From contig NZ_FNUC01000003.1 of the NCBI RefSeq assembly GCF_900106035.1, forward strand, positions 1,729,501-1,793,500: a stretch of DNA of 64,000 bases, read 5' to 3'. The translations under genes and the position numbers were made by a program. The notes beneath the pieces are model-generated. The model had not been told where the DNA came from. It saw nothing but the letters and a program-made list of their open reading frames with translations, and made no database searches. This stretch comes from Jiangella alba (GTDB lineage: Bacteria; Actinomycetota; Actinomycetes; Jiangellales; Jiangellaceae). Positions 12,342-30,740 of the stretch are shown in pieces (the first letter of the stretch is position 1; every line of letters begins with the position of its first letter).

Positions 12342-13013
12342 TTACGGCTGGTCGAGGAGGCCGTGCTCGTGTGCGAAGACGACGATCTGGACGCGGTCGC
12401 GCAGCGCCAGCTTGCGCAGGATCGCGCCGACATGCGTCTTCACCGTCGACTCGCTGGCGAACACGAGGCCGGCGATCTCGGTGTTGGACAGCCCGCGCGC
12501 CACCGCCGTGAACACCTCGCGCTCCTTGTCCGTCAGCGACAGGTACGCCGCCGGCACCGCGGTGCGGGACCGGAACTGGCCGTCCAGCAGCGTCGCGAGA
12601 TCCTGCGGCGCCAGCACCGCGTTGCCCGCGTACACCGTGCGGATCGCGTCGCGCAGCTGCAGCGGCGTGGTGTCCTTGAGCAGGAACCCGCTGGCGCCGT
12701 ACCGGATCGCCGTCGCCGCGCGGTCGTCGAGGTTGAACGTGGTCAGGACGACGACGCGCACCGGCGTGGACCGGCGCGACACCCGGTCGGGCAGGAAGAC
12801 CTGCCGGGTCGCCTCGACGCCGTCCATGTCGGGCATCCGGATGTCCATGAGGACGACGTCGGGGGAGAGGTCGTCGACCAGGCGGACCGCCTCGAGCCCG
12901 TCGCCGGCCGAGCCGACCACCGTCATGCCGTCCTGGGCGTCGACGATGACGCGGACGCCCTCGCGGAACAGCTCCTGGTCGTCGACCAGGAGCACCCGGA
13001 TGTCAGCGGTCAT
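12342..13013 (-). CDS. NarL/LuxR-type response regulator of the D-Ala operon
   Basis: A 223-residue response regulator. The receiver domain (about 1-120) has the acidic pair VDDQ at its start, the phosphoacceptor in LMDIRMPDMDG near residue 55, and the conserved Lys in FLLKDTT. The LuxR-type DNA-binding domain (about 155-217) reads LTDKEREVFTAVARGLSNTE through STVKTHVGAILRKL. ATG 13013 overlaps the kinase stop (ATGA), so it is coupled to the kinase and is the last of five overlapping genes starting with a VanX-like dipeptidase. Known glycopeptide-resistance regulators (VanR) are OmpR-type, so this pairing is unusual. It probably controls its own operon, but no binding site is proven. Confidence 0.93.
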   Translation of the reverse strand: MTADIRVLLVDDQELFREGVRVIVDAQDGMTVVGSAGDGLEAVRLVDDLSPDVVLMDIRMPDMDGVEATRQVFLPDRVSRRSTPVRVVVLTTFNLDDRAATAIRYGASGFLLKDTTPLQLRDAIRTVYAGNAVLAPQDLATLLDGQFRSRTAVPAAYLSLTDKEREVFTAVARGLSNTEIAGLVFASESTVKTHVGAILRKLALRDRVQIVVFAHEHGLLDQP

Positions 13014-14341
13014 GCGCCGCCCGCCCGCACGGGCACCCACGCCGTGGCGGTGAACGTCGACCTGCCGTCCTCGTCGCGGCGGCGGACGTCGAGGCGGCCG
13101 CCGACGGACTCGAGGCGGCGGCGCATGCCGTCCAGCCCGGCGCCGCCGCTGGCCTCGCTCGCGGCGAACGGCGACGGCGCGACGACGTTGCGGACCTCGA
13201 TGCGCAGCTCGCCCTCCCAGTGCCGCTCGACCTCGACGGGGGTGTCGCGGCGGCCGTGCTTGATGGCGTTGGTCAGCATCTCCTGCAGCACCCGGAACGC
13301 GACCACCTCCAGTTCCGGCGGCAGCGGGCGCGGCACCCCGATCTCCGTCGACACCACCTCGTGCCCGCTCGCCCGCACACCGTCGACCAGGGTGTCGAGG
13401 CCGGCCGGCGGGGCGTCGGGCTGCTGGGTGTCGGCCAGCACCTGCCGGACGTCGCGCAGGGACGTCCGCGCCGACGTCGCGATCTTCGCCATGGTGTCCT
13501 TCAGCGCCTTCGGGTCGGTGTCGTCGAGGTACTGGGCCGACTCGGCCTGCGCCAGGATGACGGCCAGCGAGTGCCCCACCACATCGTGCACGTCGTTGGC
13601 CAGCCGCGCCTGGTCTTCGCGCAGCCGGGCGATCTCGCGGGCCTGCTCGGTCTCGCTGACGGCGCGCGCGGCGTCCTCCTCGGCGGCCTCCTGCGACGCC
13701 CTCGACAGGCGCGCGCGGTCGCCGAAGCGCAGCGTCAGCCCGGCCAGCCACGGAGCTCCGAGCGCCGCCGCGCCGATGAGCGCGGCCGTCAGCTGCCACG
13801 TCGTGCTGAGCTCGCGGATGGTGTCGACCACGCTCTCGTTGCCGGCCAGGCCGGCCAGCCCGCCGAGGCCGCGCGAGTTGACGATGGCGATGACGATCAG
13901 GCCAGCGAGCGGGATGGACAGCGCGCTCAGCCACACCGTCACCGTGCTGCCCCAGCGCGCCGTCCCGAACGCGACCGCGGCGATCGTCACCTGCACGAGC
14001 ATGAGGTCGATGCCGGCCAGCAGCTGCAGCCCGCACACCCCCCACACCAGCGCCAGCGCGGCCGCTGGCAGCCGGCGGCTCAGCCCGACGGCGGCGGCGG
14101 TGCCGATCGCGACGAACACCAGCTCGACCCGGTTCCCCGGCAGCACCCATGCCGTCGCCGCCTCGTACAACCCGAGGAACGCGACGATCGCCGCCACGGC
14201 GAGGTCGGGCACCCACGCCCGCAGGTCGGCGACCGGGTCGCGGCGCGGTCGCCGACCGGCCGGCGGCGCGTCGGTGTCGAACGGGGCGATGGCGGGTCCT
14301 CCGGCGGAGTCGGTGCGGGCGTGTCCCAGCAATGGAACCAT
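13010..14341 (-). CDS. Sensor histidine kinase (HisKA_3/NarL-partner type)
   Basis: A 443-residue kinase. After a cytoplasmic Pro/Arg-rich start come about five to six membrane segments (about 45-205) with almost no external loop, so it may sense a membrane-embedded or membrane-proximal signal such as lipid II. Residues about 215-248 look coiled-coil. The HisKA_3 box is RLANDVHDVVGHSLAVILAQ with the phosphoacceptor His 252. The ATPase domain has MLTNAIKHG (N box) and GAGLDGMRRRLESVGG (G box). ATG 14341 was chosen because GGTGA precedes it; GTG 14350, which overlaps the ddl stop, is the alternative. It is coupled to the response regulator downstream. Its ligand is unknown. Confidence 0.92.
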   Translation of the reverse strand: MVPLLGHARTDSAGGPAIAPFDTDAPPAGRRPRRDPVADLRAWVPDLAVAAIVAFLGLYEAATAWVLPGNRVELVFVAIGTAAAVGLSRRLPAAALALVWGVCGLQLLAGIDLMLVQVTIAAVAFGTARWGSTVTVWLSALSIPLAGLIVIAIVNSRGLGGLAGLAGNESVVDTIRELSTTWQLTAALIGAAALGAPWLAGLTLRFGDRARLSRASQEAAEEDAARAVSETEQAREIARLREDQARLANDVHDVVGHSLAVILAQAESAQYLDDTDPKALKDTMAKIATSARTSLRDVRQVLADTQQPDAPPAGLDTLVDGVRASGHEVVSTEIGVPRPLPPELEVVAFRVLQEMLTNAIKHGRRDTPVEVERHWEGELRIEVRNVVAPSPFAASEASGGAGLDGMRRRLESVGGRLDVRRRDEDGRSTFTATAWVPVRAGGA

Positions 14342-14346
14342 GGCAC

Positions 14347-15285
14347 TCACCCGAGGACGTCGCGGACGAGCAGGTCGAGCAGCTCGGCGTACGACACACC
14401 GGCGGCGGCGAACATCTTCGGCACCTGCGACTGCTCGGTGAAGCCGGGCATCGTGTTGACCTCGTTGAGCACCGGCCCGGCCGCCGTCAGGAAGAAGTCC
14501 ACCCGGGCGACGCTCGCGCAGCCGAGGGCGTCGAACATCGCGACGGCGGCGTCCTCCAGTTCCTTGCGCTCGGTGTCGGCCAGGTCGGCGGGGATGCGGA
14601 AGTCGGCGCCGCCGCCGTACTTCGTCGCGAAGTCGAACAGCCCGTCCACCACGATCTCCAGCGCGGGCGCCACCGTGCGTGACCCGTCCGGCCGCCCGAG
14701 CACGGCGAGGTCGACCTCGCGGCCGGCGACGACGTCCTCGACGAGGACGCGGCGGTCCAGCGCGAACGCGGCGTCCAGCGCGGCCGGCAGCTCGTCCGCG
14801 GCGCGGACGAGCGACACCCCCTGGCTCGACCCCGCCGAGACCGGCTTGACGACCACCGGGTGGGTCCAGCGGTGGGCGGGCGCCGTCGACGGGGTCAGCA
14901 GGACGCCGGGCGCCACCGCGATCCCGAGATCGGCCGCTACCAGCTTCGTCGCCCACTTGTCCATCGCCAGCGCCCCGGCCAGCACGCCGGACCCGACGTA
15001 CGGGACGCCGGCCTGATCGCACAGCGCGGCCAGCGTGCCGTCCTCGCCGCGCGGGCCGTGCAGCACCGGGACGGCGACGTCGCAGGTGCGCAGGACGTGG
15101 ATCGCGTCGGTGAGGTCGACGGGACAGCCGTCGCCCTGGCGCCAGGCGCCGTCACGGCCGATGGTGAGCCGGACGACGGCGTACCCGGCGGACTCCAGCG
15201 CGCCGCCGACGGCCGCCGCCGAGGCCAGCGAGACGTCGTGCTCGCAGTTCTGCCCGCCGCCGATCACCGCCACGCGCGCCCTCAT
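14347..15285 (-). CDS. D-alanine--D-alanine (or D-Ala--D-X) ligase, ATP-grasp
   Basis: A 312-residue ATP-grasp ligase that joins D-Ala to a second D-amino acid for peptidoglycan. Visible motifs are CEHDVSLASA with Glu 15 (first D-Ala subsite), MDKWATK, VVVKPVSAGSSQGVSLV, LVEDVVAGREVDLAVLG and the Mg site NEVNTMPGF. The specificity loop reads FDFATKYGGG with Tyr 223 where D-Ala-D-Ala and D-Ala-D-Ser ligases carry an aromatic residue and VanA-type D-Ala-D-Lac ligases have a His motif. The CEHDVS opening recalls Van ligases. ATG 15285 has GGAG 8 bases upstream and overlaps the alr stop (ATGA). It is probably an accessory ligase; the second substrate is open. Confidence 0.92.
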   Translation of the reverse strand: MRARVAVIGGGQNCEHDVSLASAAAVGGALESAGYAVVRLTIGRDGAWRQGDGCPVDLTDAIHVLRTCDVAVPVLHGPRGEDGTLAALCDQAGVPYVGSGVLAGALAMDKWATKLVAADLGIAVAPGVLLTPSTAPAHRWTHPVVVKPVSAGSSQGVSLVRAADELPAALDAAFALDRRVLVEDVVAGREVDLAVLGRPDGSRTVAPALEIVVDGLFDFATKYGGGADFRIPADLADTERKELEDAAVAMFDALGCASVARVDFFLTAAGPVLNEVNTMPGFTEQSQVPKMFAAAGVSYAELLDLLVRDVLG

Positions 15286-16487
15286 CGGACGCTCCGGAGG
15301 GTGGGTGCGGCCGCTTTGCAATGAGCACCTATGGGCACCGGTGCGTAGGGGTGCTCATTGCAAAGGGCCTGACGGGTGACGCGCGGGCCGATGCCGGTGA
15401 CGATCTCGTGCTCGATCGTCCCGGCCCAGCCGGCCCACTCCGCGGCCGTCGGCTCGCCGTCGTCGCCGGGCCCGAAGACCGTCGCGACCTCGCCGGGCGC
15501 GACCTCCTCGTCGCCGAGGTCGACGACCGCCTGGTCCATCGACAGCAGCCCGACCAACGGCCGGCGGCGGCCGCGGACCAGCACCTCGGCCCGTCCGGAC
15601 GCGGCCCGCGGCAGCCCGTCGGCGTACCCGAGCGGCAGCAGCCCCAGGTGCGTCGCGACCGGCGCCGTCCACGCGTGCCCGTACCCGACCGGGGTGCCGG
15701 CGCGGACCCGGCGGACGGTCACAACCGGCGCGGTCAGCGTCAGCGCGGGCCGCAGCCGCACCGTCCGGGACGGGTCGATGCCGAACAGGCCGGCGCCGAC
15801 GCGGACCAGCGTGTGGTGGGTGCGCGGGTCGGTGAGGGTCGCGGCGGTCGCGGCGAGGTGCCGGTGCGGCGGGCGCAGCCCGAGCGAGCGGGCCACCTCG
15901 ACGCCCCAGGCGAACCGGGTGCGCCCCGTCGCGTTGGACCCGTCGGCCGGGGCGTCCGCGCAGGCCAGGTGGCCCATGACGCCGTCGACCCGGATGAGGC
16001 CGCGCTGCTCGGCCAGGCGGGCCGAGCTACACAGCCGGGCCCACTCGGCCGGCGGCGCGCCGTCGCGGGCCAGGCCGGTGTCGAGGTGGAGGTGGACGCG
16101 GGCGCCCGGCGCGGCGGCCGTGACGGCGTCCAGGTGCACGCGGCTGGGGACGGCGAGGTCGATCCCGGCGGCGACGGCGGCGGCGAAGTCCGCGTCGACC
16201 GGGTTCAGCCAGCTGAGGACGGGCGCGCGCACACCGGCCGCGCGCAGCGCCAGCGCCTCGTCGACGCTGGTGACGCCGAGCCGGGTCGCGCCCGCGGCGA
16301 GCGCCGTCCGGGCCACGTCCGCGGCGCCGTGCCCGAACCCGTCCGCCTTGACGACGGCCATCAGCGCCGAGCCCGGCGCGTGGGCGGCGATCGTCCGCGT
16401 GTTGGCGGCGACGGCGGCGAGGTCGGCGGTGAGGGTGGCGCGGCTGGTCATGGCCTGCGGGTGCGCGTCGATGGTCGCGGCGCTCAC
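15282..16487 (-). CDS. alr: Alanine racemase with palindrome-encoded C-terminal tail
   Basis: A 401-residue PLP enzyme that makes D-Ala from L-Ala (or D-Ser from L-Ser in VanT-like cases). The PLP lysine is Lys 47 in MAVVKADGFGHG, and the catalytic Tyr lies in TPVGYGHAW about 220 residues later. Also visible are HLHLDTGLARDG and LGYADGLPR. The family normally ends soon after EIVTGIGPRV; here about 26 extra residues (ALCNEHPYAPVPIGAHCKAA onward) follow, nearly all encoded by a 52-bp palindrome at 15314-15365. GTG 16487 overlaps the stop of the VanX-like gene (GTGA), and the stop overlaps the ligase start. It is cytoplasmic. Substrate preference between Ala and Ser is unknown. Confidence 0.92.
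   Translation of the reverse strand: MSAATIDAHPQAMTSRATLTADLAAVAANTRTIAAHAPGSALMAVVKADGFGHGAADVARTALAAGATRLGVTSVDEALALRAAGVRAPVLSWLNPVDADFAAAVAAGIDLAVPSRVHLDAVTAAAPGARVHLHLDTGLARDGAPPAEWARLCSSARLAEQRGLIRVDGVMGHLACADAPADGSNATGRTRFAWGVEVARSLGLRPPHRHLAATAATLTDPRTHHTLVRVGAGLFGIDPSRTVRLRPALTLTAPVVTVRRVRAGTPVGYGHAWTAPVATHLGLLPLGYADGLPRAASGRAEVLVRGRRRPLVGLLSMDQAVVDLGDEEVAPGEVATVFGPGDDGEPTAAEWAGWAGTIEHEIVTGIGPRVTRQALCNEHPYAPVPIGAHCKAAAPTLRSVR
15314..15365. repeat. 52-bp palindromic element inside alr
   Basis: Two perfect 16-base arms, CTTTGCAATGAGCACC and its exact complement, flank 20 bases whose centre, CACCGGTG, is itself palindromic. The whole unit can form one long, slightly interrupted hairpin. 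It lies in frame in the 3' end of alr and encodes LCNEH...GAHCK. Because of the symmetry, the other strand also reads LCNEH...GAHCK. It may be an inserted REP/RPE-like element, an attenuator before ddl, or both. Confidence 0.8.
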
Positions 16488-17116
16488 GCGGCCACCAGGT
16501 GCGCGCCGATCGGGCCGTACAGCGCCGCCGGCGCGCCCGTCGTCAGGGCCCAGTAGCGGTCGCCGTAGCTCCAGTGCCACCACTCGGTCGGGTAGTTCAC
16601 CAGCCCGGCCGACCCGAGGACGTCGGCCAGCAGCGCACGGTGGACGCGGGCGTTGGCGGAGATGTCGCGCGCGGCGAAGTAGCAGGCGCCGTCGCTCTGC
16701 TCCGGCGTCGCGTCGATGGGCGTGCCGAGGTCCAGGTCCCGCCCGTCGCGGTCCACCAGCGTGAGGTCGACGGCCGCGCCCGCCACGTGCGGCGCGACCC
16801 CGACCGGTGCGACGAACCGGCTGGTCAGACGCTCCAGCTCGGCGAGGTCGTGGTCGATGCCGGGGTGGGCCGCGGACACCTCGGCGGCGTACCGGGCGAT
16901 GATCGCGCGCTGGTCGGCGATGCTGCGGTGCCCCTCGACCACCCGCAGCCCGATGCCGTCGGGGAGGCGGTCGCGGGCGAGGAGCAGCCGCTGGGCGAGG
17001 GAGACCCGCACCCGCGCACGGGCCGGGCCGAACGGTTCGGTCAGCTCCACCAGCGGCTCGCCCTCGTCTTCGACGGGGATCGCGGAGACGCGCGGGTCGG
17101 ACAGCAGGATCGTCAT
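16484..17116 (-). CDS. VanX-like D-Ala-D-Ala dipeptidase (peptidase M15D)
   Basis: A 210-residue zinc dipeptidase. The VanX ligand set is complete: HVAGAAVD gives His 110 and Asp 117 (VanX His116, Asp123), and EWWHWSYGDR gives the catalytic Glu 178 and zinc His 181 (VanX Glu181, His184). The transition-state Arg corresponds to VVEGHRSIADQ, Arg 64. No signal peptide is present, so it is cytoplasmic, where VanX enzymes destroy D-Ala-D-Ala made by the house-keeping ligase. The ATG at 17116 has TAGCGT 7 bases upstream and no ribosome site, so the five-gene operon probably begins as a leaderless mRNA here. Its presence beside alr and ddl points to remodelling of the D-Ala-D-X pool. Confidence 0.93.
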   Translation of the reverse strand: MTILLSDPRVSAIPVEDEGEPLVELTEPFGPARARVRVSLAQRLLLARDRLPDGIGLRVVEGHRSIADQRAIIARYAAEVSAAHPGIDHDLAELERLTSRFVAPVGVAPHVAGAAVDLTLVDRDGRDLDLGTPIDATPEQSDGACYFAARDISANARVHRALLADVLGSAGLVNYPTEWWHWSYGDRYWALTTGAPAALYGPIGAHLVAA

Positions 17117-17123
17117 GACCAGC

Positions 17124-17129
17124 ACGCTA
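17124..17129 (-). promoter_or_regulatory. -10 element (TAGCGT) of the vanX-alr-ddl-kinase-regulator operon
   Basis: TAGCGT stands 7 bases before the ATG at 17116. The mRNA would begin at or next to the start codon. The same hexamer and spacing occur before the genes at 28913 and 35260. Confidence 0.6.
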
Positions 17130-30703: not shown

Positions 30704-30740
30704 GTTGACGCTGACGCCAACGGTTGGCGTCAGCGTCAAC
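30704..30740. repeat. 37-bp perfect palindrome (REP-like; possible terminator)
   Basis: GTTGACGCTGACGCCAAC and its exact complement flank a single G. It lies between the convergent flavoprotein and methyltransferase genes, where an 18-bp hairpin could stop transcription from both sides. A diverged copy (29 of 37 identical) at 23028-23064 shows it is a repeated element and not only a terminator. Confidence 0.75.

What the first reader, a model, noticed from the sequence alone, without database searches (positions are those of the whole stretch)
15314..15365. A 52-bp palindrome is translated as the C-terminal tail of alanine racemase
Two perfect 16-base arms and a palindromic centre lie in frame at the end of alr, adding about 26 residues beyond the usual end of the family. 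Owing to the symmetry, LCNEH...GAHCK can be read on either strand. This resembles the protein-coding palindromic elements described in Rickettsia (RPE), but in an actinobacterium and in an essential-type enzyme. As RNA, the hairpin sits just before ddl and could also tune the ratio of racemase to ligase.
Basis: partly seen in the sequence, partly recalled or inferred. Interest (0 to 1): 0.75.

Follow-up and report, generated by a model that had tools for sequence, protein, structure and literature searches.

The report
Dispersed palindrome repeat inside alr end
The palindrome at the end of this alanine racemase gene is one of about 57 near-identical hairpin-forming repeats scattered through a Jiangella genome, mostly between gene ends, and the extra protein tail looks like a harmless by-product; the repeats matter because their sequence changes in step across a whole genome and the known transposase for such repeats is missing.

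Summary
Positions 15314-15365 are a 52-bp palindrome with perfect 16-bp arms, read in frame as the last residues of an Alr-type racemase, beyond the conserved fold. It is not a local curiosity: the host (genus Jiangella) has about 57 copies of the same paired 26-nt inverted repeat, and two congeners have 36 and 31. Most copies lie between genes, favouring 3' ends and convergent gaps; alr (C-terminus) and cobD (N-terminus) are the clear in-frame cases. In alr the tail is present in four species and absent in seven. Its codons change amino acids about as freely as silent sites, while several arm changes are mirrored, so any selection acts on the nucleic acid, not the peptide. The family looks most like REPINs (inverted doublets with 16-nt invariant ends), but no RAYT/Y1 transposase exists in six genomes tested. 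Two unexpected features: at 25 orthologous sites one species has switched arm position 25 in 46 of 50 arms (a genome-wide 'dialect'), and arm spacing comes in steps of 10-11 bp. I read it as a REPIN-like population kept by an unknown sequence-specific factor, probably acting at transcript ends; the alr tail is a passenger.

The parts
15314..15365 (.). 52-bp palindromic repeat, one copy of the dispersed family
15314..15339 (+). 26-nt arm: invariant outer block CTTTGCAATGAGCACC, variable TATGG, inner block GCACC
15340..15365 (-). second 26-nt arm, same motif on the minus strand (CTTTGCAATGAGCACCCCTACGCACC)
15285..15368 (-). extra C-terminal tail of Alr beyond the conserved fold, about 28 codons, most of them made by the palindrome
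15282..16487 (-). alr (Alr-type racemase), second alr copy of the genome
14347..15285 (-). ddl (D-Ala-D-Ala ligase family), ATG overlaps the alr stop (ATGA)
16484..17125 (-). M15 / VanX-VanY type D-Ala-D-Ala peptidase, upstream in the same operon
13010..14350 (-). sensor histidine kinase of the cluster
12342..13013 (-). LuxR-type response regulator of the cluster

Best explanation
The palindrome is one copy of a genus-specific, REPIN-like repeat: two inverted 26-nt arms (CTTTGCAATGAGCACC-N5-GCAYC) with a centre of 0, about 10.5 or about 21 bp. SHOWN: about 57 copies in this genome, mostly between genes and enriched in convergent gaps; most sites shared with related species; arms evolve far more slowly than flanks except at one position that changed in nearly all copies of one species; whole genomes either keep many copies or almost none. 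INFERRED: a sequence-specific factor in trans recognises the paired arms on the DNA (helical spacing) or as a hairpin in RNA, and keeps or homogenises the population; most copies act as, or settle at, transcript 3' ends (hairpin terminator or stabiliser-like role). At alr a copy sits in the free linker between the end of the Alr fold and the ddl start; it happens to be in an open frame, so it is translated as a passenger tail that keeps the ATGA coupling to ddl. The peptide itself has no detectable function.
For: Copy number and genus restriction; no exact full copy in other genome or viral collections. Context: in the material fetched, 17 convergent, 20 tandem and 2 divergent gaps carry it versus 7, 64 and 41 gaps without (Fisher p = 4e-7 for convergent versus rest). 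Shared sites: 26 loci paired between G000 and G010, many with G008, some with G011, G003, G002, G005. Arm positions 3-16 changed 26/700 between orthologues against 12.4% in flanks; position 25 changed 46/50. Insert lengths 10-12 (34 cases), 19-22 (11), none at 1-9 or 13-18. All-or-none: 57, 36, 31 copies against 0 in four congeners, including G009, sister of G000+G010. Tail: absent in seven species; pN 0.19 and pS 0.16 in the element against 0.037 and 0.175 in the Alr core.
Against: No trans factor was identified; Y1/RAYT is absent and no gene family recurs next to copies beyond common ones. The concerted change could come from short gene conversion without any function. Length steps could reflect a few founder lineages. 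Orientation statistics use home-made gene calls and loci chosen around elements. No RNA or protein data. Some copies sit in 5' or divergent gaps.
Confidence: 0.66

Rival explanations
1. Rickettsia-RPE-like element: selfish palindromes that preferentially enter protein-coding genes in frame and add peptide segments.
For: In-frame at alr C-terminus in four species and at cobD N-terminus in three (G000, G010, and G008 with a GTG start), same frame LCNEHxYA..GAHCK; a lone arm in a 32-codon ORF between two genes.
Against: About 48 of 50 sites are between genes; peptide not conserved in alr; in-frame copies sit at free ends of proteins at operon junctions, not inside folds; several other genes simply stop at the TGA inside the arm.
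Confidence: 0.08
2. MITE: the arms are terminal inverted repeats moved by a classical DDE transposase elsewhere in the genome.
For: Inverted repeat ends, dispersed copies, clean empty sites in relatives.
Against: No conserved interior; centre from 0 to over 100 bp with unrelated sequence; occupied and empty sites differ by more than the element and show no constant target duplication; one traceable new copy carried about 100 bp of alr/ddl flank with it.
Confidence: 0.12
3. Selection is only for an RNA hairpin that ends or protects transcripts; no dedicated binding factor, and identity between copies comes from occasional recombination.
For: 3'-end and convergent preference; at the same convergent gap G010 has an unrelated long palindrome where G000 has the repeat (L086); the only other 16-bp perfect palindrome of the window also sits in a convergent gap; mirrored arm changes at both alr loci.
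Against: Primary sequence of 15 outer bases is nearly invariant, which pairing alone does not require, while inner positions 17-21 are often mismatched; near-total loss in sister genomes; helical spacing.
Confidence: 0.3
4. The hairpin in alr is a regulatory attenuator that sets the Alr to Ddl ratio.
For: Hairpin lies 28 nt before the ddl start inside a translationally coupled junction; strong fold; kept in four species.
Against: Seven species with the same operon do without it; the ddl ribosome-binding region is outside the stem; no expression data.
Confidence: 0.12

Closest known systems
REPINs (REP doublets forming hairpins; Bertels and Rainey 2011, PMC3116915)
   Same: Two invariant 16-nt ends as inverted repeats, spacer constrained mainly in length, hairpin capacity, compensatory changes, intergenic, singlets as remnants, tandem clusters that include flanks.
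   Different: No RAYT/Y1 transposase in six genomes; I saw no internal REP-type hairpin in the single arm; tens rather than hundreds of copies; stepwise spacing; species-wide single-base switch.
Rickettsia palindromic elements (RPE), as described in PMC10969869
   Same: Palindromic dispersed repeat that can be read in frame in host genes.
   Different: RPEs are about 150 bp, nearly half lie in ORFs and encode a conserved peptide; here 42-86 bp, mostly intergenic, peptide unconstrained in alr.
DNA uptake sequences of Neisseriaceae and their dialects (PMC3630211)
   Same: Inverted pairs between genes forming terminator-like stem-loops; closely related species carry genome-wide sequence variants.
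   Different: About 57 pairs in 7.7 Mb instead of thousands of copies per genome; no competence link known or tested.
Prokaryotic MITEs (review PMC10969869)
   Same: Non-autonomous, inverted-repeat, dispersed.
   Different: No conserved interior, no constant target duplication seen, no source element found.

Membership tests
REPIN / REP-RAYT | Inverted doublet of a highly conserved 16-mer with a length-limited spacer | tested here: met
REPIN / REP-RAYT | Cognate RAYT (Y1 transposase, PF01797) in the genome | tested here: not met
   0 of 6 Jiangella genomes including G000, G008, G010; control genomes such as E. coli positive
REPIN / REP-RAYT | Extragenic location | tested here: met
   exceptions alr and cobD
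REPIN / REP-RAYT | Excision intermediates in population sequencing | not testable with these tools
   no read data
RPE (Rickettsia palindromic element) | Large share of copies in frame inside ORFs | tested here: not met
   2 clear cases among about 50 loci examined
RPE (Rickettsia palindromic element) | Conserved encoded peptide | tested here: not met
   alr: pN about equal to pS; the cobD reading is more alike between G000, G010 and G008
MITE | Constant target-site duplication at insertion | tested here: inconclusive
   occupied versus empty sites show no constant duplication, but sites are old
MITE | Parental transposase with the same ends | tested here: inconclusive
   no recurrent neighbour family pointing to one; whole-genome search for a parent not possible
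DNA uptake sequence | Very high copy number and link to a competence receptor | tested here: not met
   57 doublets in 7.7 Mb; receptor not tested
Rho-independent terminator | GC-rich stem followed by a U-tract | tested here: not met
   strong stem but no U-run after CAAAG
Known structured RNA | Match to an Rfam family | tested here: not met

The most novel reading that the evidence does not exclude
A population of paired 26-nt repeats that behaves like REPINs but without RAYT: an unknown sequence-specific factor recognises both arms on one face of the DNA, its target base switched in one species with all copies following, and when the factor is lost the whole population disappears. Its copies serve as transcript ends and occasionally become protein termini.
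Probability: 0.38. Interest if true: 0.75.

Novelty: new variant of a known kind. Interest (0 to 1): 0.55.

Why it matters
Paired palindromic repeats of this shape are thought to be kept alive by RAYT transposases. Here a REPIN-shaped family persists over a genus without one, and it offers a clean natural experiment: orthologous sites, unchanged centres, one arm base switched almost everywhere in one species. That makes it possible to ask whether such repeats are homogenised by copying or follow a coevolving binding partner. It also shows how repeat DNA becomes protein ends (Alr C-terminus, CobD N-terminus) without apparent constraint on the peptide.

Tried and rejected
Exact full-palindrome scans of genome and viral collections gave nothing (the own genus may be left out of the first). 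Rfam: none. Y1/RAYT: none. Recurrent neighbour genes that could be a dedicated enzyme: only common families such as ABC transporters and permeases. I first expected covariation to prove an RNA stem; in G000 it does not, because the outer arm hardly varies and inner positions are often mismatched; mirrored changes are seen between orthologues and could also come from palindrome correction by template switching. Precise MITE insertion was set aside because empty and occupied sites differ by irregular lengths. The core comparison G000 with G011 is misaligned by an indel and is not used. One pair (L026 with L153) is partly mis-assigned in an array, so its counts are approximate. Papers found on Jiangella mention no such repeat; the actinobacterial examples of the REP survey RepRanger do not include Jiangella.

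Full report
WHAT IS THERE. The palindrome is real and exactly placed: 15314-15365, two perfect 16-bp outer arms inside 26-nt arms, centre GCACCGGTGC. It folds much better than shuffles and is one of two such perfect inverted repeats in the window. It lies in the alr reading frame; alr ends TGA at 15282-15284, overlapping the ddl start as ATGA. Solved Alr structures align only up to residue 374-376 of 402, so about 28 residues are extra.

THE GENE CONTEXT. The window alr is not the only alr. It belongs to a cluster read on the minus strand: M15/VanX-VanY-type peptidase, alr, ddl, sensor kinase, LuxR-type regulator. A second alr lies at G000:C4:73634-74749. By coincidence or not, that gene also has a copy of the palindrome just upstream, in the same four species.

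THE FAMILY. The arm occurs 78 times forward and 74 reverse in the host genome with up to two mismatches, against 1 and 5 for the reversed control. A covariance model finds 57 whole elements in the host G000, 36 in G008, 31 in G010, about 7 in G011, one to three in G001, G002, G003, G005 and none in G004, G006, G007, G009 (counts are lower bounds because the first look is capped). The genus is Jiangella: G003 has exactly the 5,585,780 bases published for J. gansuensis YIM 002T (PMC5292007). The consensus CTTTGCAATGAGCACCNATACGCACC-centre-GGTGCGTATNGGTGCTCATTGCAAAG is a perfect palindrome in its shortest form and has no stop in two of three frames.

WHERE COPIES SIT. Of about 50 host loci examined nearly all are between genes. 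With a simple trained gene finder, gaps holding the repeat are 17 convergent, 20 tandem, 2 divergent; other gaps in the same material are 7, 64, 41 (p = 4e-7 for convergent versus rest). The background is not a random genome sample. In several genes the TGA inside the arm is the stop codon. At one convergent gap (L086) G010 lacks the repeat but has an unrelated long palindrome at the same place, and the other long palindrome of the window (30704-30740) is also in a convergent gap. This suits a role at transcript ends, though there is no U-tract.

IN-FRAME CASES. alr: the four species with the palindrome (G000, G010, G008, G011) have the long tail; seven species lack both, with a short variable linker instead. 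cobD: the element forms the N-terminus just after an ATGA or GTGA junction (MSPLCNEHYYAPVRIGAHCK in G000, similar in G010, GTG start in G008), while G009 and G007 start directly with a short leader. The true cobD start is not proven. A lone arm lies in a small ORF between two coupled genes and is shared with G010. All use the frame LCNEHxYA. In alr, G000 against G010, the element codons show pN 0.19 and pS 0.16, the core 0.037 and 0.175. So the tail is not held at the protein level. Several changes are mirrored in both arms (positions 13 and 25 in G010, an A to G change in the outer arm in G011), which keeps the palindrome at the cost of amino acids.

HOW IT EVOLVES. 26 host loci could be paired with G010 element loci, and many G008 sites match too. 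G011, G003, G002 and G005 share some. Yet G009, sister to G000+G010 in a tree of the region, has none, and five species have the same short empty site at the housekeeping alr. The simplest reading is an old population lost as a whole several times; parallel gain is not excluded. Between 25 orthologous pairs the arms changed at 3.7% of positions 3-16 against 12.4% of flanks, while position 25 changed in 46 of 50 arms, from GCACC in G000 to GCATC in G010, although centres are clearly orthologous (for example ACCTGGTGCC in both). This is concerted change of arms only. It may be copying between repeats or selection by a changed binding partner.

SPACING. Added centre lengths in G000 and G008 are 10-12 (34 cases), 19-22 (11), 24, 25, 27, 34, with none at 1-9 or 13-18; a 42-bp form lacks 10. 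Steps of 10-11 bp suggest that both half-sites must lie on one face of the DNA, but common descent of a few forms could mimic this.

SPREAD. One new copy can be traced: at G000:C2 a 172-bp insertion, absent from the relatives compared (G002 has a different insert there), contains 153 bp of the alr/ddl junction, 97% identical, with the palindrome in the middle. The finding's own locus was thus most likely the donor. No target duplication of constant size is visible. Tandem arrays of single arms also occur.

WHAT IT IS. Architecture, location and population behaviour match REPINs (PMC3116915), but the defining RAYT is absent, so I do not file it there. RPE membership fails on location and peptide conservation (RPE features taken from PMC10969869). 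MITE membership is unproven. The dialect-like shift recalls DNA uptake sequences (PMC3630211), but numbers are far too low.

VERDICT. Observation confirmed; the RPE reading is partly right in form, wrong in emphasis. The alr tail is most likely a passenger. The repeat family itself is the interesting object.

Noticed in passing
window 30704-30740: A second perfect palindrome (18-bp arms, 1-nt centre, GTTGACGCTGACGCCAAC) in a convergent gap; no copy in the loci fetched, so probably a single strong hairpin at two gene ends.
   Followed up: partly
L087:3082-4053 (G000:C4) and orthologues L277, L279: The same palindrome forms the N-terminus of cobD in three species, right after an overlapping stop/start; absent in G009 and G007.
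   Followed up: yes
L097:3926-4099 (G000:C2, about 18.6 kb): 172-bp insertion unique to the host genome carrying a 153-bp copy of the alr-ddl junction with the palindrome, next to a MarR-type gene.
   Followed up: yes
L026:1499-1826, L015:1499-1924, L085, L086, L098: Tandem arrays of one arm plus flank (periods about 38, 149, 73, 32 and 49 bp), reminiscent of slippage or ordered REPIN clusters.
   Followed up: partly
L074:4054-4104 (G000:C4:74853-74904): The housekeeping alr locus also carries a copy, in the same four species as the window alr; the gene upstream ends at the TGA inside the arm.
   Followed up: partly
L019 and L020 flanks; L162 (G010): Other long palindromes of different sequence lie at or beside repeat sites (for example CACCAGCAAACCGCCAGCCAT, CCATGATCATCAATGATC), perhaps further families.
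   Followed up: no
window 12342-17125: Peptidase-alr-ddl-kinase-regulator cluster resembling vancomycin-type cell wall remodelling operons; function and link to resistance not tested.
   Followed up: partly
L075:4003-4400: Tandem repeats of about 74 bp directly beside a lone right arm in the host, absent in G010.
   Followed up: no
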